The translations under genes and the position numbers were made by a program. This document shows positions 13,799 through 27,908 of a DNA stretch of 64,000 nt, one piece after another. Under the pieces are notes generated by a model. The model searched no databases. It had not been told where the DNA came from and was given only the letters and a program-made list of their open reading frames with translations. The stretch is from Cyanobacterium sp. Dongsha4. GTDB taxonomy: Bacteria; Cyanobacteriota; Cyanobacteriia; Cyanobacteriales; Cyanobacteriaceae. Location: NCBI RefSeq assembly GCF_036345015.1, contig NZ_CP084098.1:2493326-2557325 (forward strand), given 5' to 3'. Every line of letters starts with the position of its first letter. Within the stretch, counting starts at the first letter, position 1.

Positions 13799-15397
13799 AT
13801 GTCTTCGCAAACTACAATCACAAAAACTATTGCTGACTTACTTTCTCTTGTGGAAAATAAGTATGGTGTTGGGGTAGGGTTAGAATTATTACGGCAATTA
13901 GGGGGACATAATATTATCTCTGATAAGGGTGAACCTCCTGATGTACCTTCTATAAGTAATGGCAATCATCCTCAAGTTGTGATTGTGGGAGCAGGAATTG
14001 CAGGATTAGTTTTGGCTTTGGAGTTGAAGGAAAGAGGTGCGAAAGTTATCCTTTTAGAAGCATCATCTCGATGTGGAGGCAGAAATTTAACTATTCGCTC
14101 AGGAGAATTAATCCAAGAAGAGGGTTTTCCTGCTCAAAAATGTAATTTACCGTCTGGACAATATTTTAATGCGGGGCCGGGGCGGATTTCTCATCATCAT
14201 CGGGCTGTTTTACATTATTGTCGTCGTTTTGGTTTATCATTGCGTCCTTATTTTACTCTGAATAGGGGGGCTTTGCTTCACCGTTGGCTACCTCAGACTA
14301 ATCAGGACATTTTTATCAAAAATAGACAAGTGCTGTTTGACGGGCTAGGAAGGCTCTCTGAGTTAGCTTTTAAGGGTTCTACAAGTCTGAATTTACAAGA
14401 ATCTTTACCGCAGGATTTGGCTTTGGCCTTAAATGACTGGTTACAAACTTTTGGGGGAGTTGATGAGAAGGGTAATTATCAAGAAGATGGAAAAAGTGGC
14501 TATCAACTAATGCGAGGGGGGCGCGATGATAAGGGAAAACCTTGCTCTGCTATGGAATTGGAACAGATTTTAGGTTTGAGATTATGGTATGATGACCCTC
14601 GCCGTAGTCCTGATGTAATTGATGAGCAGTTAACAATGTTTGAAATTGAAGGGGGTAATGATGGTTTAGTTACTGCTTTGGAGTCAGCTTTAGGGGATTG
14701 TATTCGTCTCAATCATGGGGTAGAAGAAATAGTCCAAGATGAAGGGGGAGTAACCCTGAAAGGTTCACTTACTAATGATTCTGGGCAAACTTTTCAATTA
14801 AAATGCGATCGCATTGTGATTACTGCTCAACCTCCTGTTTTAAAAAATATGCGTATTGATGTGGGGAATGCTTGGCTAGAGGCATTTAAAGCTCTACCTC
14901 CTCGGTTTGCGGTAAAAGTTGCAGGATGGATGAAACGACGTTTTTGGGAGGAAGATTTAGGGATTTATGGGGGAATTACGTTTACTAATCTACCTATTCA
15001 ACAAATTTGGTATCCCAATAATGGTTTCTTAGAGCAAAATGGAGGCTTATTGGTGTTAGCCTATAGTGCCTTGGAATATGGAGAAGCCCTTGGGAAAATC
15101 GCCCCTGATATTCGTTGTCTGGCGGCACAAGAATTAGCCAGTCGCATTCATCCACAAATAAAATCTGAATCTAGTCATCTAATGACGATTGCTTGGCAAA
15201 ATATTCCCTATATTTACTCCCCTTGGATGGCTTGGACTCCTGAAAAATATAATCAATACTTCCATCAAATTACAAGATGCGATCGACGTATTGCCTTCGC
15301 TGGAGATTGGTGTAGTCATCTTCCTGCATGGCAAGAAGGAGCGATTCGTAGTGCTTATGATTTAATTGAGTGGGCTTTATATGGCAAAGAGTCTTAA
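13799..15397 (+). CDS. FAD-dependent amine oxidase, L-amino-acid oxidase/dehydrogenase-like
   Basis: The dinucleotide-binding motif VVIVGAGIAGLVLALELKER is followed by LLEASSRCGGRN (FAD ribose and pyrophosphate contacts) about 60 residues from the start. An unusual FNAGPGRISHHHRAVLHYCR segment follows, and the protein ends with the typical flavin-contact tail IAFAGDWCSH...WQEGAIRSAYDLIEW. This layout matches flavin monoamine oxidases, and the GPGRISHHH block resembles cyanobacterial L-arginine or L-amino-acid oxidases (slr0782-type, from memory). Substrate is therefore a suggestion. I prefer the ATG at 13799 over the TTG at 13778; neither has a good ribosome site. A transposon ends about 40 bases upstream, so its promoter may have changed. 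Confidence 0.8.
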   Translation: MSSQTTITKTIADLLSLVENKYGVGVGLELLRQLGGHNIISDKGEPPDVPSISNGNHPQVVIVGAGIAGLVLALELKERGAKVILLEASSRCGGRNLTIRSGELIQEEGFPAQKCNLPSGQYFNAGPGRISHHHRAVLHYCRRFGLSLRPYFTLNRGALLHRWLPQTNQDIFIKNRQVLFDGLGRLSELAFKGSTSLNLQESLPQDLALALNDWLQTFGGVDEKGNYQEDGKSGYQLMRGGRDDKGKPCSAMELEQILGLRLWYDDPRRSPDVIDEQLTMFEIEGGNDGLVTALESALGDCIRLNHGVEEIVQDEGGVTLKGSLTNDSGQTFQLKCDRIVITAQPPVLKNMRIDVGNAWLEAFKALPPRFAVKVAGWMKRRFWEEDLGIYGGITFTNLPIQQIWYPNNGFLEQNGGLLVLAYSALEYGEALGKIAPDIRCLAAQELASRIHPQIKSESSHLMTIAWQNIPYIYSPWMAWTPEKYNQYFHQITRCDRRIAFAGDWCSHLPAWQEGAIRSAYDLIEWALYGKES

Positions 15398-15443
15398 CTA
15401 ATTTGAGTTCGACAAATTTTCAGTGCTGTAAATTATTTCAATA

Positions 15444-15673
15444 ACCTGAGTTTTGGATAAGCTGAAAGTATTATTTTCTCGTAGTCAGAAAGCCTTATAG
15501 CTTCTTAGAAATAACGATAAAATTGCCTTAATCCGAACTGACGTTAAATATATTCAACCCTTACTACCCCAAAACTCTAAGCCTCTACTTTCCCCTCTCA
15601 CCCTCTCTCCTCATCACCCTAACACCTGAAACCTGACACCTAGCCTTATCGGATATTCTTAAACCGAACTGAG
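15444..15673. repeat. MITE-like element, copy A (230 bp) with 8-bp flanking duplication
   Basis: The ends are CCTGAGTT... and ...AACTGAGG (imperfect inverted repeat), flanked by TTTCAATA at 15436-15443 and 15674-15681. It has no coding capacity. An inverted copy with roughly 85-90% identity by eye lies at 42616-42860. The interior includes a C-rich stretch of CCTCTC and CCTAACACCTG units. It fills much of the 477-base gene-free stretch between the amine oxidase and histidine kinase genes. Confidence 0.8.
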
Positions 15674-15688
15674 GTTTCAATAGTAATT

Positions 15689-15732
15689 AATCTGAGTTTC
15701 GGATAAATTTTCATCTATGAGCAAAGTAAAAA
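15689..15732. repeat. Dispersed repeat starting CTGAGTTTCGGATAAATTTT
   Basis: Directly after copy A comes another short dispersed unit (CTGAGTTTCGGATAAATTTT then CATCTATGAG), also present at 29305, 30838 and 51343. The remaining bases up to 15874 show no gene or clear signal. Confidence 0.6.
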
Positions 15733-15874
15733 GGGTAAACCCCTCTGTGTCTCACCTCTCGAGCCAAGGTTTTTTCAAAGTAGTGGTAAAATTAAAAATT
15801 AAGTTGTTTGCCTTAATGTTTTTAGCAATGACTGGGGGGTGTTGACAGGGGAATGGTTGCATGAGCAAATACCT

Positions 15875-17116
15875 TTAATGAATCGGTAAAAAAATAGTAA
15901 AACAAGTACCTTTTTTTAATTGACTGTTAACGGTAATTGTGCCCTTATGTTCAGTAACAATACTTTTAACAATTGATAATCCTAAACCAGAACCACCACT
16001 CCAATGACTACGGGATGTATCCCCTCGCCAAAATCGTTCAAAAATTTTCTCAATGTTTTCTGGTGCAATGCCAATTCCCGTATCTCTTATTTCTATTTCT
16101 ATAGAGCTTTTGTGTTTTTTTCCTCGAATGTAAATTATCCCTAGTATTGGCGTATAATAAATGGCATTATCTATTAAATTTTTTAATAATCTTTCTAGTT
16201 TTAAAGTATCTCCCAAAACCAATAAAAAAGGATCTAATTCTAAGTTTAAATGAATCTTTTTTTCTCTAAGTTTAACTTGATATTGTTGGACTAAATTTTT
16301 GAGAATAATTGCCAAATCAATCTTCTCTTTTATAAGAGGTTTTAAAGTATCAGAACGAGCTAACAATAATAAATCTTCCGTTAAACGAGTCATTTGTTCT
16401 GTGGCACTGGCGATCGCATCAAAACTTTCTCGATCGCTATCTCTCATACCATCTGGATATTTCAGAGAAACAGTAACGTTGCTATCAATTACCATCAAAG
16501 GATTACGCAATTCATGGGAAGCATCAGCAGTAAACTGTTTTAAGCGTAGAAAACTCTCTTCAATAGGTTTCATTGCCTGATTAGTTAATATAATTCCGCC
16601 GATTCCACTGGTAATTACAGCTAAAATGATACTGATGGTTAATCCTCGATCTAATTTGTTTAACGTTTCTTCTGAGTCTTTTAAGGATTGACTAACTCTA
16701 ACATAACCAATTAACCGATCAAGATCGCTATCAATAACGGGTAAAGTAACCCCTTGAATCTTCGGATTTCCATTTTGAGTTTGAATTAAATCTGTTGATG
16801 AAAAAGGTAAACTCATCACGAAATTACCTTGCTTTAAAATTGAATTACCTTGTTGATCAAACCATTCTAAAGATTGATGGTTTTTGTCTAAATCTTGAAG
16901 CCGAAAATCATTATCAATTTTTAACTGATTATTTTCCCATTCTGCATTGGCTGTAGCACCATTTCCTAATGCCCTTAAATTGGCGATCGTTTGTTCTTTT
17001 AAACTATGAGCAAAGATTAAACGAACTCCTAGGGCAAAAATGCTTAAAATTGAAGCTAAGATAAGCAAATAAGATAAAAGTAAGCGAGAACGAATCTTGT
17101 TAAACATTAGAGCCAT
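15875..17116 (-). CDS. Sensor histidine kinase
   Basis: A 413-residue inner-membrane sensor kinase. Spans at residues about 12-34 and 159-178 enclose a roughly 125-residue periplasmic sensor with no recognised fold. The HisKA box has the phospho-acceptor H201 in DASHELRNPLMVI, and the ATPase domain has NLIDNAIYYTP (N box), DTGIGIAPENIEKIFERFWR (G1/F) and SGGSGLGLSIVKSI (G2). The gene overlaps the response-regulator stop by one base (TAATG), so the two are translationally coupled. The neighbouring DUF347 genes on the same strand are the best candidates for its regulon. The signal is unknown. Confidence 0.92.
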   Translation of the reverse strand: MALMFNKIRSRLLLSYLLILASILSIFALGVRLIFAHSLKEQTIANLRALGNGATANAEWENNQLKIDNDFRLQDLDKNHQSLEWFDQQGNSILKQGNFVMSLPFSSTDLIQTQNGNPKIQGVTLPVIDSDLDRLIGYVRVSQSLKDSEETLNKLDRGLTISIILAVITSGIGGIILTNQAMKPIEESFLRLKQFTADASHELRNPLMVIDSNVTVSLKYPDGMRDSDRESFDAIASATEQMTRLTEDLLLLARSDTLKPLIKEKIDLAIILKNLVQQYQVKLREKKIHLNLELDPFLLVLGDTLKLERLLKNLIDNAIYYTPILGIIYIRGKKHKSSIEIEIRDTGIGIAPENIEKIFERFWRGDTSRSHWSGGSGLGLSIVKSIVTEHKGTITVNSQLKKGTCFTIFLPIH

Positions 17117-17790
17117 TAAATTGCCATTAAACGATAACCTACCCCATAAACGGTTTCAATTAAATTATGAGGACTTCCTGCATTTTTCAGTTTTTTGCGT
17201 AAATTAGTTATATGAGTTCTCACGGTTTCCTCTCCAGATAGATCATCAAAAGTCCAGATTCTATCTAAAATAGCCGATCGAGTTAAAACTTGATGAGGAT
17301 TTCTTAAAAAATATTCTAAAATCATGTACTCTTTCGGGGTTAAGTCAAGAGCATTTCCTGCATAGGTGACTAATTGACTTTGAGGATTTAGCTGTAAATC
17401 GCCATGAGTTAAAACAGGAGGAGCGATTTCTGTGTATCTACGGGATAAAGCACGGATTCTTGCTGATAATTCCTCTAATTTAAACGGTTTAACTAAATAA
17501 TCATCCGCCCCTGCATCAAGCCCAATCACTTTATCTTCGGTAGTATCTTTTGCCGTTAACATCAAAATTAAGCCCTGATAATTTTCTTTTCGGAGTCGCT
17601 GACACAGGCTAATTCCATCGAGTTTAGGTAACATTAAATCTAATAAAATTAAATCATATTGATTTGCTTGAGTATATTGCCATCCTTCTATTCCATCTTG
17701 TGCTAAATCCACAGAATGACATTGGTAGCTTAAATCTTTCGCAAGAGGTTTAGAAATCCTCACATCATCTTCAACGATTAAAATTTTCAT
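17116..17790 (-). CDS. OmpR/PhoB-family response regulator
   Basis: The 224-residue protein has a receiver domain (acid pocket VEDD at 7-9, phospho-acceptor D51 in ILLDLMLPK, K near 104 in VKPF) and a winged-helix DNA-binding domain (LTPKEYMILEYFL..., ending ETVYGVGYRLMAI). It is encoded directly before its kinase with a one-base overlap. It most likely controls transcription of its own operon and of the adjacent membrane-protein genes, from which it is separated by 159 bases. Confidence 0.94.
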   Translation of the reverse strand: MKILIVEDDVRISKPLAKDLSYQCHSVDLAQDGIEGWQYTQANQYDLILLDLMLPKLDGISLCQRLRKENYQGLILMLTAKDTTEDKVIGLDAGADDYLVKPFKLEELSARIRALSRRYTEIAPPVLTHGDLQLNPQSQLVTYAGNALDLTPKEYMILEYFLRNPHQVLTRSAILDRIWTFDDLSGEETVRTHITNLRKKLKNAGSPHNLIETVYGVGYRLMAI

Positions 17791-17949
17791 AAAATGTTAG
17801 ATAATTTTTCTAAAAAAAGGAAAGATTATGATTACTATACAAAAATTGAATCAACAAACAAAACGTTTAAAAACTAAGTAAGTTATTTGGATTGTCAACT
17901 AAAACCCGTCTAAATCATCAGATGAAGGTAGGAGCAAAATAAAGTCTTC

Positions 17950-18690
17950 TTAAGTTAGAGGTATTCTTTTCTTCTTTTTTCTGACGGAGAAAACGAGAAT
18001 CACAAATAATAAAAGTAGAGTAATAATTGAAGCATAGCCTCTAGGTAATGCTAAACCGCCATCGGTCAATGGTTTAGTAAGAAAATCGCCAAAAGTTGCC
18101 CCAAAAGGACGAGTAAAAATGAAAGCAATCCAAAATAGTAAAATATCGTTTAATTTAGTCATATAGTGCAAAGCAATGACGACACCAATAACCGTTGCTG
18201 TTAAAAAAGCACCCCGTATATAACTTAACCCTAAATTACTGGTAATATAATCTCCAAAAGCAGTTCCTAAACTATTAGAAAAGACGATCGCCAACCAGTA
18301 TAAAGTTTCTTTATCTTTTTTGACGATAGGATAAACATCAAGCTCTCCATCCCGATAATACCAAATACTTAGAACAAGCAAAAGTCCTGTAACCAAAATG
18401 AGAGAACCTGCAGTATAACCTAATTCAAATGATCGATCCATCATATCGGAAATTTCCGTTCCTGCGGTTGTAGTAGCAATGATCGCTGTCCAATAAAAGA
18501 TGGGGCGATATTTATTCATGCTAATTTGTATAAACAGAATTGCAACTAAGGCAACAAATGTAATGGCAAAACCTACATAATAACCGAGATTTAAAGACAT
18601 GGAAAGAAAATCACCTGCGGTTTCTCCCAAAGTTGTGGCAAGGATTTTCATGATCCAGAAAGAAAAGGTAACTGCGGCAACTTTATTCAT
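17950..18690 (-). CDS. DUF347 four-repeat membrane protein (COG4705), copy 1
   Basis: A 246-residue integral membrane protein made of four internal repeats, each two membrane spans with a GT/GE..GD motif: LATTLGETAGDFLS, ATTTAGTEISDMMD, SNSLGTAFGDYITS and TRPFGATFGDFLT. This is the DUF347/COG4705 pattern. The function is unknown; the repeated acidic residues inside the membrane suggest transport of a cation. It lies upstream of the two-component pair on the same strand, next to a paralogue (18853-19620), so the four genes look like one regulated unit with gaps of about 160 bases. The C-terminal tail is very basic (KKKKR). Confidence 0.85.
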   Translation of the reverse strand: MNKVAAVTFSFWIMKILATTLGETAGDFLSMSLNLGYYVGFAITFVALVAILFIQISMNKYRPIFYWTAIIATTTAGTEISDMMDRSFELGYTAGSLILVTGLLLVLSIWYYRDGELDVYPIVKKDKETLYWLAIVFSNSLGTAFGDYITSNLGLSYIRGAFLTATVIGVVIALHYMTKLNDILLFWIAFIFTRPFGATFGDFLTKPLTDGGLALPRGYASIITLLLLFVILVFSVRKKKKRIPLT

Positions 18691-18852
18691 TTTATTTATC
18701 CTAATTTTTAATTAAATTTTTCCGATCAAGAAATAATCATTTATAGAAATTTTGAGTGTCTTACAGGAAGTTTGAGAAGTCCATTTTTCATTCTGAGTGT
18801 AGAGATACTTCACTGTCGTAAACCATGACATTAATACTTTTCAAACAACTTC

Positions 18853-19620
18853 TTAGTCTTCTGAATTGGCAGAAAATGAGATTCCTTTTCTGGGCTTAAG
18901 ACTTAAATAAATAACCAAGCTAAAAATGATACAAAGAAAGAGCATACTTGTTCCTACAGTTCCATAACCAAATCCACCATCTTGAGTTGGTTGAGAGAGT
19001 AAATCCCCGATCGACGCTCCCAAAGGACGAGTTAAAATATAAGCTAACCAAAATGCTAAGACTGCATTCATTGTCCAGTAGTAATAAGAGATAGTAATTA
19101 AGGCGATCGCACTACCAAAGACAAAAGCCGATGGGGCATAACCTAATCCTAATGCTTCGGCTAATAAATCTCCAGTAGAAGTTCCTAACGCAAAAGTTAA
19201 GAGAATCGCAATCCAATAAAAAAGCTCTCTTTTAGGAGTATTTATCGAGTGCATCGCCAAGGTTTTTTCACTTTGATACCAGAAACCAAAAACCCCCAAT
19301 AACATCACAGTAAAAACGAGAGTTGTTGTCTGTAAACTAATTCCAAAATCATCTACTAATTGATCAGTTATTAATGTGCCAACGATACTAATTAAAACGA
19401 CAACTAACCAATAACTTAAAGGAATATATCGTTTTAGCCTAAACTGATTTAAAAGTGCGATCGATAATAAAGCACCCATTATCAATGAGGTAAGACTTAA
19501 ACCAAAATTGAGTGTGATAGAAAGAAAATCTGCTGCTGTTTCCCCGACGGTAGTAGCTAAAACTTTAATTATCCAGAAATAAATTGTTACTTCCGGAACT
19601 CTGTCTAACATTTTTCTCAT
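18853..19620 (-). CDS. DUF347 four-repeat membrane protein (COG4705), copy 2
   Basis: A 255-residue paralogue of the neighbouring gene with the same four-repeat plan: LATTVGETAADFLS, ISIVGTLITDQLVD, TFALGTSTGDLLA and TRPLGASIGDLLS. N-terminal phrasing (PEVTIYFWIIKVLATT against AAVTFSFWIMKILATT) shows a tandem duplication, but the second repeat has diverged and lost its acidic spacing. It is first in the set of four minus-strand genes and is divergent from the disrupted PAP2 gene across 350 bases. The function is unknown; the paralogues could form a heteromer or serve different substrates. Confidence 0.85.
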   Translation of the reverse strand: MRKMLDRVPEVTIYFWIIKVLATTVGETAADFLSITLNFGLSLTSLIMGALLSIALLNQFRLKRYIPLSYWLVVVLISIVGTLITDQLVDDFGISLQTTTLVFTVMLLGVFGFWYQSEKTLAMHSINTPKRELFYWIAILLTFALGTSTGDLLAEALGLGYAPSAFVFGSAIALITISYYYWTMNAVLAFWLAYILTRPLGASIGDLLSQPTQDGGFGYGTVGTSMLFLCIIFSLVIYLSLKPRKGISFSANSED

Positions 19621-19970
19621 GATATTTTTGCAATTAACTTTTCACAAAACTTAGTTTTCAACTAATCAAAGTGTTAGAGTTTAATGATTAGCAACAAATT
19701 TATGATCGAGAAAAAATATTAAGAACTTAAAAAGATTTACGAAAAACATAAAAAATTTTTCTTTCTTTTGCCGACTTTAGTAAATAGACTACGTAAAACA
19801 AGTTTTATCTGATATTACACACTATTAACGTTGAAATATTGAACTTTCTTAGTCAACTGACGGCTATAACTCTTATTGTACCGTTATGAAATTATACTTT
19901 CTGGAGATGTCTATTCCTTCAAGCAAGAAATGTGGTAAACCAGAGAAAACATGATTAAGAAGATTTTTAT
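19621..19970. other. 350-base divergent intergenic region
   Basis: The sequence is AT-rich with no gene seen. It must hold promoters for the DUF347 gene on the minus strand and the PAP2 gene on the plus strand. No confident operator or -35/-10 pair could be assigned, and no short-repeat cluster is present. Confidence 0.5.
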
Positions 19971-20391
19971 ATGAGTTTTTGGCAACAAATTCGCTCATTT
20001 CTAACCATTTTTAAAAATTGGCTAATTGCTTATCATACCGAGCTAGTTATATTATTACTTGGTGTTTTTATTCCATTATGGATATTTGGAGAATTAGCAG
20101 AAGAAGTTTGGGAAAATGATGGAGGATTTGCATGGGATGTGCCGATTCTTCTAAGTATTCACTCCATTGCTTCCCCTCAACTTGACACTTTCGCCAAGAT
20201 TTTAACTAAATTGGGGGTTTTTTGGGGTGTTTTTCCAATAGCAGTTATTATTTTATCTATTCTGTTGCATCAGCGTCGTTGGCATCAAATAACTTACTTA
20301 TTAGTAACTCTACTAGGAAGTATTATTATTAATCGAACAGCGAAGTTATTGTTACATCGAGTACGTCCACACTTATGGGAATCTCCTGCCC

Positions 20392-20499
20392 GCTCTAAAG
20401 AACTTATGATAATCAAGAAAATCTAAGATTATCTGTCAATTTTCTGCTTCACCGTGTCCTAATAATCTAAATTATTAGTTTGTCTGACACTCCACAGAC
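20392..20499 (-). ncRNA. Candidate IS607 omegaRNA 3' region
   Basis: The 108 bases between the tnpB stop and the element's end contain CTAATAATCTAAATTATTAG (a strong hairpin) and a GTGTAA/TTACAC-like pair around 20450-20505. By analogy with characterised TnpB systems this is where the guide RNA scaffold would end. The assignment rests on position and foldability only. Confidence 0.3.
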
Positions 20500-21606
20500 T
20501 TACACGGTAGAGCTTACCGCATTTTCCAAATTAATTGAAGCATTTAAGTCTCTATCAATAATTAGTCCACAGTAAGAGCAATTAAAGGTTCTATCTTTTA
20601 GCTTTAAATCTGATTTAATTTCATTGCAATTAGAACAAGTTTTAGAAGATGGAAAACATCTATCTACGATGTGTAAAATTGCCCCATACCAGTCACATTT
20701 ATACTCTAATTGTCTTCTAAATTCATAAAATCCACAGTCTGCTATGGCACTGGCTAATCGGTGATTTTGTAGCATTCCAGACACATTCAAATCTTCAATC
20801 ACTACCTCACTGTGGTTTTTAGTGAGGTAATGAGTTAATTTGTGAATGGCATCTTTCCGAATACAACTAATCCGATAATGGAGTTTTGCCAATTTTACCG
20901 ATGCTCTTTTATAGTTAGTAGAACCCTTTACTTTCCTACTTAATTCTCTTTGTAAATGTGCTAACTTTTTCTTGACAGTTCTATAGGCTTTAACATTGGG
21001 AAATACTAACCCATTACTCAATGTAGCTAGTTTTTTTATGCCAATATCACAACCGACTCTACCAAAAGGATGTTCTATTTTTTCTGGCTCATAATCTACT
21101 TTGTAAGAAATAAACCATCTATTAGCCCGTTTAGAAATTACACAATTACTCCCTGATTTTTTTACTAAAATTGAAGGAATAAATTTTTCATAAGTTTTAA
21201 CCCAACCAATTCTAGGTAATTTAATTTTGTTTCCTTTGATTTGGATATTACCTTCGAGATAGAAACTATCTCTGTTATTTTTCTTTTTAAATCGAGGTGG
21301 TTTAGCTATTTTGTTAAAAGATCTATCCCAAGCAATTCTTAAGTCTCTAAGAGCCTGTTGAGGGCTACATTTTGATACTTCATAATACCATTGATTTTGA
21401 CTTTTTACTTCTGCTACTAATCGTTTATGTAAATCAATAGCACTGGGAAATTTTTGTTTATTTTCAGGGTTTGCTTGATTATAATCAAGTATTTCCTTGC
21501 AAATAGCTAATCCCCAATTATAAGCATGACGTGCAACTCCTGCGTGTTTTGCCATAATTGTTCGTTGCTTATTATTCAGTTTTAATTCCGTTTTGAAACT
21601 AATCAT
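20500..21606 (-). CDS. tnpB: IS607-type TnpB, RNA-guided nuclease family
   Basis: A 368-residue TnpB with the RuvC-like residues intact (GCDIGIKKLA, VIEDLNVSGM, IDRDLNASINLE) and the zinc ribbon CSNC...CSYC. Only the general TnpB fold is shared with the protein at 12503; the sequences differ throughout, so the two come from separate elements. Its ATG overlaps the tnpA stop (ATGA), giving coupled translation. A guide RNA would overlap the 3' end on this strand. The gene appears functional. Confidence 0.92.
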   Translation of the reverse strand: MISFKTELKLNNKQRTIMAKHAGVARHAYNWGLAICKEILDYNQANPENKQKFPSAIDLHKRLVAEVKSQNQWYYEVSKCSPQQALRDLRIAWDRSFNKIAKPPRFKKKNNRDSFYLEGNIQIKGNKIKLPRIGWVKTYEKFIPSILVKKSGSNCVISKRANRWFISYKVDYEPEKIEHPFGRVGCDIGIKKLATLSNGLVFPNVKAYRTVKKKLAHLQRELSRKVKGSTNYKRASVKLAKLHYRISCIRKDAIHKLTHYLTKNHSEVVIEDLNVSGMLQNHRLASAIADCGFYEFRRQLEYKCDWYGAILHIVDRCFPSSKTCSNCNEIKSDLKLKDRTFNCSYCGLIIDRDLNASINLENAVSSTV

Positions 21607-22241
21607 TTTTTCTGTACTTGTTCAAATAATTTGTCTCCTTCTTCGGTTAATGCTGACATTAGTTTTCTATGCTTACGACTTCTTGAACCATAAAGTCTAG
21701 CACTGAAAACAGTAATTATTTCCAAAACGTCTTGTGCTAATTCTTCTTCAAAAGTCGGTTGATCTCCTTTATGAATAATTACAATCTCGATTCCTTGCAA
21801 TTCACACAATGTGAACACTAATTCAGAACCAAAACGAAGCAACCTATCTTTATGAGTAATAACGAGACGTTTCATTTGCTTCTTTAGTATTTTTTCAAGC
21901 AACAAAAGCAATCCTTTCTTGTGATAATTCATGCCTGAGCCTAAGTCTTTAATTATTTCAGTTCTCCAACCTTTAGCTGAACAATAGGCTTCCAACATTG
22001 CTTGTTGTCTTACTAAATCTTCTTTTTGGTCGTGACTAGAAACACGAGCATACCCTATTGTGGGATAATCTCCAGAATCTAAATTCATCAGTTCAGCAAC
22101 ATCGTAATATCTAGTACCGCCTTTAGTTTTTCTAGTCGGCACTATTTCTCCTGTGGCTTCCCACTTTCTTAGAGTGTCTGGGGTTGTTCCTAGTATTTTA
22201 GCCGCTTCTCCTATCTTAACTAATCTTTTTTCCATATACAT
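21603..22241 (-). CDS. tnpA: IS607 serine-recombinase transposase TnpA
   Basis: The 212-residue protein has an N-terminal MerR-like helix-turn-helix (KIGEAAKILGTTPDTLRKWE) followed by a serine-resolvase catalytic domain with the nucleophile S68 in GYARVSSHDQ and the ITHKDRLLRFG arginine block. This order, DNA-binding domain first, is specific to IS607 transposases. It needs no long terminal repeats and inserts at a two-base core, which agrees with the junctions seen in the PAP2 gene. Confidence 0.94.
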   Translation of the reverse strand: MYMEKRLVKIGEAAKILGTTPDTLRKWEATGEIVPTRKTKGGTRYYDVAELMNLDSGDYPTIGYARVSSHDQKEDLVRQQAMLEAYCSAKGWRTEIIKDLGSGMNYHKKGLLLLLEKILKKQMKRLVITHKDRLLRFGSELVFTLCELQGIEIVIIHKGDQPTFEEELAQDVLEIITVFSARLYGSRSRKHRKLMSALTEEGDKLFEQVQKK

Positions 22242-22601
22242 AGATTAGCATAGATTTTACTAAATAACAACAAACTGTTATCTACCCTGAATTTGATTTT
22301 GGGTTTCCTAGTGGTCATGCAATGTCAAGTATGACAATAGTTGCGGCTCTAGTCATTCTAACTTGGAGCAGTCGTTGGTGCTGGTTAGTATTAATCAGTG
22401 GAGGAATATTTGTTCTAGCGATCGCTTGGACTCGGTTATATTTAGGAGTCCATTATCCTAGTGATATTTTAGCGGGTTGGGTTGCTTCTATTGCTTGGAC
22501 AGTAGGGGTTAGATTATTAATTAAATTTCCATCAAAAGGCAAGAGCCAAGAATGAAAAAAAATCGACTATTTTTCAATCAAAATTGATTTTCTGGGTTTA
22601 G

Positions 22602-22817
22602 TTTATTGAGTACTATTGTACTTTATGTAGGATCTCAGATTATCATTCTATTGCACTATTGGATGAAGTAATAGCGAATCAATCTCCAGATAATTTAGAC
22701 AAGTTAGAAAATTTATTGATATATCGTTGTCAAAAGCTGATGAAACAAAAAGAATTAATCAAAGGTTTAACTTGTTATCATTGGTGGCCAAAAACCGGAG
22801 ACGTTATTTATAACTAA
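22602..22817 (+). pseudogene. Short coding remnant, possible transposase C-terminus
   Basis: Within the 352-base gap between the split PAP2 gene and the next gene, one frame is open from 22602 to TAA at 22817. It reads DYHSIALLDEVIANQSPDNL, then IYRCQKLMKQKELIKGLTCY and HWWPKTGDVIYN. It has no good start codon and looks like the tail of a longer protein; the KGLTCYHWWP ending resembles some IS transposase C-termini from memory. The family is not certain. Confidence 0.4.
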
Positions 22818-22907
22818 TTATCCGAACTTGATATTATTCCCGTAAAACTATAAAGTTTTCAGAATGGGGAAGAATAGTATTTTCCTTTTATCCTGAACTT
22901 AGCTTAT

Positions 22908-27835: not shown

Positions 27836-27908
<73 letters not shown>

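What the first reader, a model, noticed from the sequence alone, without database searches (positions are those of the whole stretch)
20389..22287. IS607 insertion splits a PAP2 gene and is exactly reversible on paper
Removing 20392-22286 restores a 690-base frame with all PAP2 motifs (KLLLHRVRP, PSGH, TRLYLGVHYPSD). The CC core is present at both junctions. IS607 recombinases can excise cleanly, and TnpB is proposed to cut the empty site and favour retention, so the gene could act as an on/off switch.
Basis: partly seen in the sequence, partly recalled or inferred. Interest (0 to 1): 0.6.

Follow-up and report, generated by a model that had tools for sequence, protein, structure and literature searches.

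The report
Jumping element splits a phosphatase gene
A small, apparently complete IS607 transposon sits inside a membrane phosphatase gene of a cyanobacterium; cutting it out would restore the gene exactly, which is how this family inserts, and nothing found shows that the cell uses it as a switch.

Summary
Observation confirmed. A 1,895-bp IS607 element (tnpA serine recombinase, tnpB nuclease, RAGATH-18-like guide RNA) lies inside a PAP2 phosphatase gene. Removing 20392-22286 restores a 690-base frame that keeps 61 of 61 columns invariant in 20 homologues. The genome holds an identical second copy and a third whose tnpA lost its catalytic-serine segment. All three, and three relatives from other genomes, show the GG (CC) core at both ends, with AGGG at the left junction. 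The rejoined site would carry AGGG directly before the PAP2 sequence that this copy's RNA would use as guide. The filled site has AGCGG there, so only an empty allele should be cut.

The switch interpretation is not supported. Seamless reversibility is a family property. No empty allele of this locus was found: the one other genome of the genus held lacks the gene, and its locus is rearranged. TnpB targeting should push empty alleles back towards 'off', more so in a polyploid cell. This is an ordinary, probably recent knock-out of an accessory gene by a known kind of element. Its testable interest is whether TnpB homogenises insertions across chromosome copies.

The parts
19971..20391 (+). 5' part of the PAP2 phosphatase gene (140 codons and one base; holds motif KLLLHRVRP); in the filled allele it runs on to a stop ending at 20426 inside the element (151 aa)
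20390..20391 (.). CC (GG on the tnpA strand) crossover core at the element's right end
20392..22286 (-). IS607-family insertion sequence, 1,895 bp counting one copy of the core; tnpA strand is the minus strand
   Evidence: identical copy at G000:C1:548293-550187
21603..22241 (-). tnpA, 212 aa: N-terminal MerR-type helix-turn-helix plus resolvase catalytic domain, catalytic-serine motif YARVSS present (S68/S69; motif recalled)
   Evidence: Pfam MerR and Resolvase; NCBIfam transpos_IS607 203.8 bits against cut-off 110; residue positions
20500..21606 (-). tnpB, 368 aa RNA-guided nuclease, apparent RuvC residues D187, E271, D353 (assigned from motif strings) and zinc-finger cysteines present
   Evidence: Pfam OrfB_IS605 and Cas12f1-like_TNB; NCBIfam guided_TnpB 288.4 bits against 100; residues
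20441..20498 (-). RAGATH-18-like core of the predicted guide RNA (reRNA), just downstream of tnpB
   Evidence: Rfam RF03064, 42.4 bits, E 3.9e-6, below the gathering score 44.9; same in copies 2 and 3; fold of 20372-20510 z-score -2.44, 2 of 200 shuffles fold as well
20370..20389 (-). predicted 20-nt guide segment, taken from PAP2 itself
   Evidence: inferred from the reRNA layout in PMC10711439 and PMC11061315; preceded by AGGG in the rejoined site and by AGCGG in the filled site
22285..22286 (.). CC (GG) crossover core at the element's left end; with the adjoining flank it reads AGGG on the tnpA strand, the predicted target-adjacent motif
22287..22555 (+). 3' part of the PAP2 gene (motifs PSGH and TRLYLGVHYPSD); its first internal ATG (22322) lies after PSGH

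Best explanation
A complete, probably autonomous IS607 element inserted at a GG (CC) dinucleotide inside an accessory PAP2 phosphatase gene and inactivated it. The serine recombinase TnpA crosses over at GG, so insertion is seamless and excision would in principle restore the gene exactly. The element's RNA would pick up PAP2 sequence as its guide and direct TnpB to cut empty alleles next to AGGG, which favours retention of the insertion. Shown by sequence: boundaries, core, intact tnpA and tnpB, preserved gene halves, and the match of guide and motif in the rejoined site. Inferred: that TnpA and TnpB are active and that excision happens. No evidence supports a regulated switch; the gene is best called disrupted.
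For: Exact frame and junction. TnpA over its IS607 cut-off, TnpB over the guided_TnpB cut-off. Identical 1,895-bp second copy and a third copy. GG core at both ends in 6 of 6 elements read, three here and three from other genomes, with AGGG at the left junction in all six. As a yardstick, one search's window frequencies (GG or CC 0.084 per position; AGGG 0.0031 per strand) imply that about 7% of GG sites would have AG before them. RAGATH-18 match in all three copies. Guide preceded by CAGGG in the rejoined site but AGCGG in the filled site. Published: GG crossover and a circular intermediate that reseals the donor (PMC4058570, passages); all sequenced insertions at GG, (G)GG preferred (PMC6188088, passages); GGG motif for ISXfa1 TnpB (PMC10711439, passages); AGGAG or GAGGG motifs (PMC11061315, passages). 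Gene halves undamaged and copies 1 and 2 identical, consistent with a recent insertion.
Against: No empty allele of this site was found in a close strain, so both the direction (insertion into an intact gene) and the age rest on homologues of 62-74% identity; the named collection may leave out the nearest records. Identity of copies 1 and 2 could also come from gene conversion. The RAGATH-18 score lies below Rfam's gathering score. The stricter NCBIfam model IS607_TnpB is not met (262.6 bits against 350). The published evidence for a circle is a personal communication in PMC4058570, and PMC6188088 leaves the order of excision and insertion open. Activity of neither protein was tested.
Confidence: 0.88

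Rival explanations
1. Reversible on/off switch: the element excises and re-inserts at this site often enough that PAP2 alternates between on and off states in the population.
For: Exact reversibility on paper and intact tnpA; gene halves undamaged.
Against: No empty allele of this locus seen. IS607 inserts with little target specificity (PMC4058570; PMC6188088), so return to the same site is not expected. TnpB targeting would remove empty alleles. The three copies in this genome sit at three unrelated sites. The listing for IS607 with 'phase variation' (6 papers) shows no paper on such a switch by title or abstract start; I read none of the six.
Confidence: 0.04
2. Old, fixed inactivation (overlaps with the best explanation): the gene is dead and this copy no longer moves; the preserved halves only mean that too little time has passed for decay.
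For: A third copy has lost the catalytic segment of tnpA, so copies do decay. A second PAP2 gene (219-aa open frame) remains in the genome. The same-genus genome lives without this gene.
Against: tnpA of copy 1 is intact and identical to that of copy 2.
Confidence: 0.3
3. IStron: the element carries a self-splicing group I intron and is removed from the PAP2 messenger, so the gene still works.
For: IStrons combine a group I intron with an insertion sequence (PMC4227781, abstract start only); that some are IS605/IS607-like is recalled.
Against: No intron family match up to E 1. Only 108 and 45 noncoding bases lie outside the genes. The element's genes are antisense to PAP2.
Confidence: 0.01

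Closest known systems
IS607 family (IS607 of Helicobacter, ISC1904, ISXfa1)
   Same: MerR-type helix-turn-helix plus serine recombinase tnpA, tnpB, GG crossover core, insertion without target duplication. Relatives at DNA level in 111 of 388 genomes of the order, own included, at E 1e-20, and in 97 plasmid records, mostly Campylobacter, none covering 80% of it
   Different: Nothing essential; AGGG at the left junction in 6 of 6 elements read is a slightly longer shared motif than the (G)GG described (PMC6188088 passages)
IS607 TnpB with RAGATH-18-derived RNA (PMC11061315)
   Same: RAGATH-18-like element directly downstream of tnpB, G-rich motif at the left end; copy 2 has GAGGG, as reported for 4 of 22 strains
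   Different: Motif at copies 1 and 3 is CAGGG; Rfam score just below the gathering score; activity not tested
TnpB-driven spread of insertion sequences in multicopy plasmids (PMC11870625, preprint)
   Same: Predicted logic: the insertion site is recorded in the guide and empty copies are cut; its transposon trap also used an IS607 element (passages)
   Different: Here it would act on chromosome copies; not shown

Membership tests
IS607 family insertion sequence | tnpA is a serine recombinase with an N-terminal DNA-binding domain | tested here: met
   MerR at 9-46 and Resolvase at 62-193; transpos_IS607 203.8 bits against cut-off 110
IS607 family insertion sequence | GG/CC core at both ends and no target duplication beyond it | tested here: met
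   3 of 3 copies in this genome and 3 of 3 relatives read at both ends, out of 10 relative loci compared; in each of the three relatives one end was placed by extending the alignment 6 to 16 bases
IS607 family insertion sequence | seamless interruption of target DNA | tested here: met
   PAP2 junction continuous against 20 homologues
IS607 family insertion sequence | TnpA-catalysed excision as a circle and insertion | not testable with these tools
   needs reads or bench work
RNA-guided TnpB with RAGATH-18 RNA | TnpB nuclease with intact RuvC residues | tested here: met
   guided_TnpB 288.4 bits against 100; D187, E271, D353 assigned from motif strings. The stricter IS607_TnpB model is not reached: 262.6 against 350
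RNA-guided TnpB with RAGATH-18 RNA | RAGATH-18 RNA downstream of tnpB | tested here: inconclusive
   42.4 bits, E 3.9e-6, gathering score 44.9 not reached; no hit in the gathering-threshold scan of the window
RNA-guided TnpB with RAGATH-18 RNA | G-rich target-adjacent motif at the left end | tested here: met
   AGGG in 6 of 6 elements read
Site-specific phase-variation switch | both alleles occur in related strains or in one population | tested here: inconclusive
   no empty allele of the locus found; the one other same-genus genome held lacks the gene; populations not testable
IStron | group I intron within the element | tested here: not met
   no intron family match up to E 1 in 19800-22800; noncoding ends of 108 and 45 bases
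PAP2 phosphatase (the interrupted gene) | three conserved motifs and Pfam PAP2 profile | tested here: met
   rejoined protein, PF01569 E 4.9e-19; motifs read, motif definitions recalled

The most novel reading that the evidence does not exclude
In a polyploid cyanobacterium the TnpB guide recorded from PAP2 acts as a drive within the cell: each chromosome copy that regains an intact PAP2 gene is cut and converted back from a sister copy, so the knock-out is held at all chromosome copies and the 'on' allele is only transient. Occasional failed repair would leave deletions instead.
Probability: 0.2. Interest if true: 0.5.

Novelty: new member of a known kind. Interest (0 to 1): 0.2.

Why it matters
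As a finding it is ordinary: one more IS607 insertion, well resolved. It gives a clean test case, because the target gene, the identical second copy and a copy with broken tnpA but intact tnpB are in one genome. In such a strain one could ask whether TnpB keeps insertions homogeneous across chromosome copies, which the plasmid work of PMC11870625 (passages) suggests; the passages I saw concern plasmids, not chromosomes.

Tried and rejected
Natural empty sites in the same-genus genome G001 were sought for all three copies. PAP2 gene: absent. The left context (window 13963-15392) matches G001:C1:484000-485429 and the right context (window 22906 onward) matches G001:C1:3046443-3052140 on the other strand, so the locus is rearranged. 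Copy 2 site: G001 lacks the interval from 18 bases before to 340 bases after the element, so it is a deletion and not an empty site. Copy 3 site: the match starts 36 bases beyond the element, and the other flank does not match within the 1.4 kb looked at; I did not search the whole of G001 for that other flank.

A conserved PAP2 neighbourhood was looked for: apart from one kinase match of 33% identity, none of seven neighbouring genes was found at E 1e-8 in 10 homologue regions of 7.6-14 kb. The IStron idea was rejected. A script looking for exact 20-base anchors at the G001 deletion junction found none; only a one-base repeat at the two endpoints was seen, so it says little about how the deletion arose.

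The organism could not be named: records of the own genome or very near it may be left out of the named collection.

Full report
What is there. The stretch 20392-22286 is a 1,895-bp insertion in a PAP2 phosphatase gene. Joining 19971-20391 to 22287-22555 gives 690 bases, 229 codons and a stop, without an internal stop; three adjacent registers give the same product. The rejoined protein scores E 4.9e-19 with Pfam PAP2.

Is the gene real and undamaged. A search of 388 genomes of the order (drawn evenly from a larger group) found matches at E 1e-60 or better in 76, the own genome included; two listed matches (G178, G154) contain stops, the other listed rows do not. In an alignment with 20 homologues from other genomes (62-74% identical to it) the junction shows no insertion or deletion. 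All 61 columns invariant among them (counting columns with at least 15 letters) are kept, 28 left and 33 right of the junction, and 106 of 111 columns that are at least 90% conserved. Tested the same way, the homologues themselves keep 58 or 61 of 61-69 such columns, so the halves look like a normal, recently intact gene. In the filled allele the left half ends in the element after 151 aa, and the first internal ATG of the right half follows PSGH, so neither half should work alone.

What the element is. tnpA (21603-22241, minus) has MerR and Resolvase domains and passes NCBIfam's IS607 transposase model, 203.8 bits against 110. tnpB (20500-21606, minus) passes guided_TnpB, 288.4 against 100, but not the stricter IS607_TnpB model, 262.6 against 350. 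The serine motif of TnpA and the apparent RuvC residues D187, E271 and D353 of TnpB are present; I assigned these from motif strings, not from a structure. Downstream of tnpB lies a RAGATH-18-like RNA, 42.4 bits, E 3.9e-6, a little below Rfam's gathering score of 44.9, so it is missing from the gathering-threshold scan of the whole window. It is found likewise in copies 2 and 3, and at 38.4 bits in the relative L037, but not in L043 at E 0.01. It sits where PMC11061315 (passages) describes these guide RNAs. Folding of 20372-20510 gives z -2.44; 2 of 200 shuffles fold as well.

Copies. The genome (4.32 Mb, 5 contigs) holds three: this one; one identical over 1,895 of 1,895 bases at C1:548293-550187; and one at C1:2706964-2708723 that differs by 9 substitutions and a 135-base in-frame deletion. 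The deletion removes 45 residues of TnpA including the serine motif, while TnpB keeps its length with 3 substitutions. Each copy has GG on the tnpA strand at both ends, preceded on the left by AG. Related DNA occurs in 111 of 388 genomes of the order, own included, at E 1e-20. Of ten related loci compared, I read both ends of three whose alignments reached or nearly reached them (L037, L039, L043; one end of each placed by extending the alignment). All three also have AG|GG at the left and GG at the right. So AGGG at the left junction holds in 6 of 6 elements read;'s window frequencies about 7% of GG sites would have AG before them.

How it works. Published work gives GG crossover and a circular intermediate that reseals the donor (PMC4058570, passages; the circle there rests on a personal communication), insertion at GG with (G)GG preferred (PMC6188088, passages), and for ISXfa1 TnpB a GGG motif (PMC10711439, passages). 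For 23 RAGATH-18 TnpBs from 22 strains the motifs were AGGAG (18 of 22) or GAGGG (4 of 22) (PMC11061315, passages). In the rejoined PAP2 site the 20 bases that would serve as guide follow ATTCAGGG; in the filled site they follow AGCGG. The empty allele therefore carries motif plus perfect guide match, the filled allele does not carry the motif. Cutting of the empty allele and repair from a filled sister copy would restore the insertion. That step is inferred. A preprint reports such a drive for insertion sequences in multicopy plasmids, with an IS607 element in its transposon trap (PMC11870625, passages). Many cyanobacteria are polyploid (general knowledge; not tested for this strain), which would strengthen the bias towards the filled state.

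Why not a switch. Reversibility on paper belongs to IS607 insertions in general. A switch needs both states to persist, and the element's own nuclease should select against the empty state. Target choice is loose, so re-insertion at the same place is not expected. The three copies here are at three unrelated sites. I could not examine populations. The listings for IS607 with 'phase variation' (6 papers), IS607 with 'precise excision' (1 paper) and IS607 with cyanobacteria, insertion and reversion (1 paper) show no such switch by title or abstract start. I did not read those papers, and most subscription papers are not held.

Relatives. The one other genome of the genus held (G001) has no match to the rejoined protein at 1e-10 and one PAP2 gene, apparently of the other kind (not aligned). 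The own genome also has a second PAP2 gene at C1:2291752-2292075 with a 219-aa open frame. The interrupted gene is therefore accessory, and its loss may cost little. Around it the two genomes are rearranged: window 13963-15392 and window 22906 onward match far-apart places of G001, and the interval with the kinase, regulator, two DUF347 genes and PAP2 finds no extended DNA match there. In the same family, 6 of 14 genomes (own not counted) had matches at 1e-10 or better, 33-45% identical, one of them with a stop, probably a different group.

Verdict. A confirmed, precisely mapped and ordinary IS607 insertion that has disrupted an accessory PAP2 gene. The switch is not supported. The retention or drive reading is plausible, untested and worth a simple experiment.

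Noticed in passing
L002 1053-3675 (G000:C1:548293-550187 and flanks): The identical second copy splits the HEPN gene of a nucleotidyltransferase-HEPN pair (a toxin-antitoxin type pair). In the same-genus genome G001 the nucleotidyltransferase gene is kept but the HEPN gene is mostly missing, the deletion starting 18 bases before and ending 340 bases after the place of the element. Whether that deletion is a trace of a former insertion or nuclease cut is open.
   Followed up: partly
L006 5001-6760; L039 1501-2850: Two copies, the third copy here and one in another genome (G306), have lost part of tnpA but keep the element's two ends and the tnpB side (the tnpB reading frame of L039 was not checked).
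   Followed up: partly
window 15442-15676: A repeat of up to about 235 bases with 53 full or partial matches in this genome and dozens in G001; possibly a small non-autonomous mobile element. Another copy lies about 1.4 kb from copy 3.
   Followed up: no
window 15400-22900: A segment with a sensor kinase, response regulator, two DUF347 membrane genes and the PAP2 gene has no extended DNA match in the same-genus genome; its two sides map to distant places there.
   Followed up: partly
window 27836-27908: A tRNA gene, the one Rfam match over its gathering score in the window.
   Followed up: no
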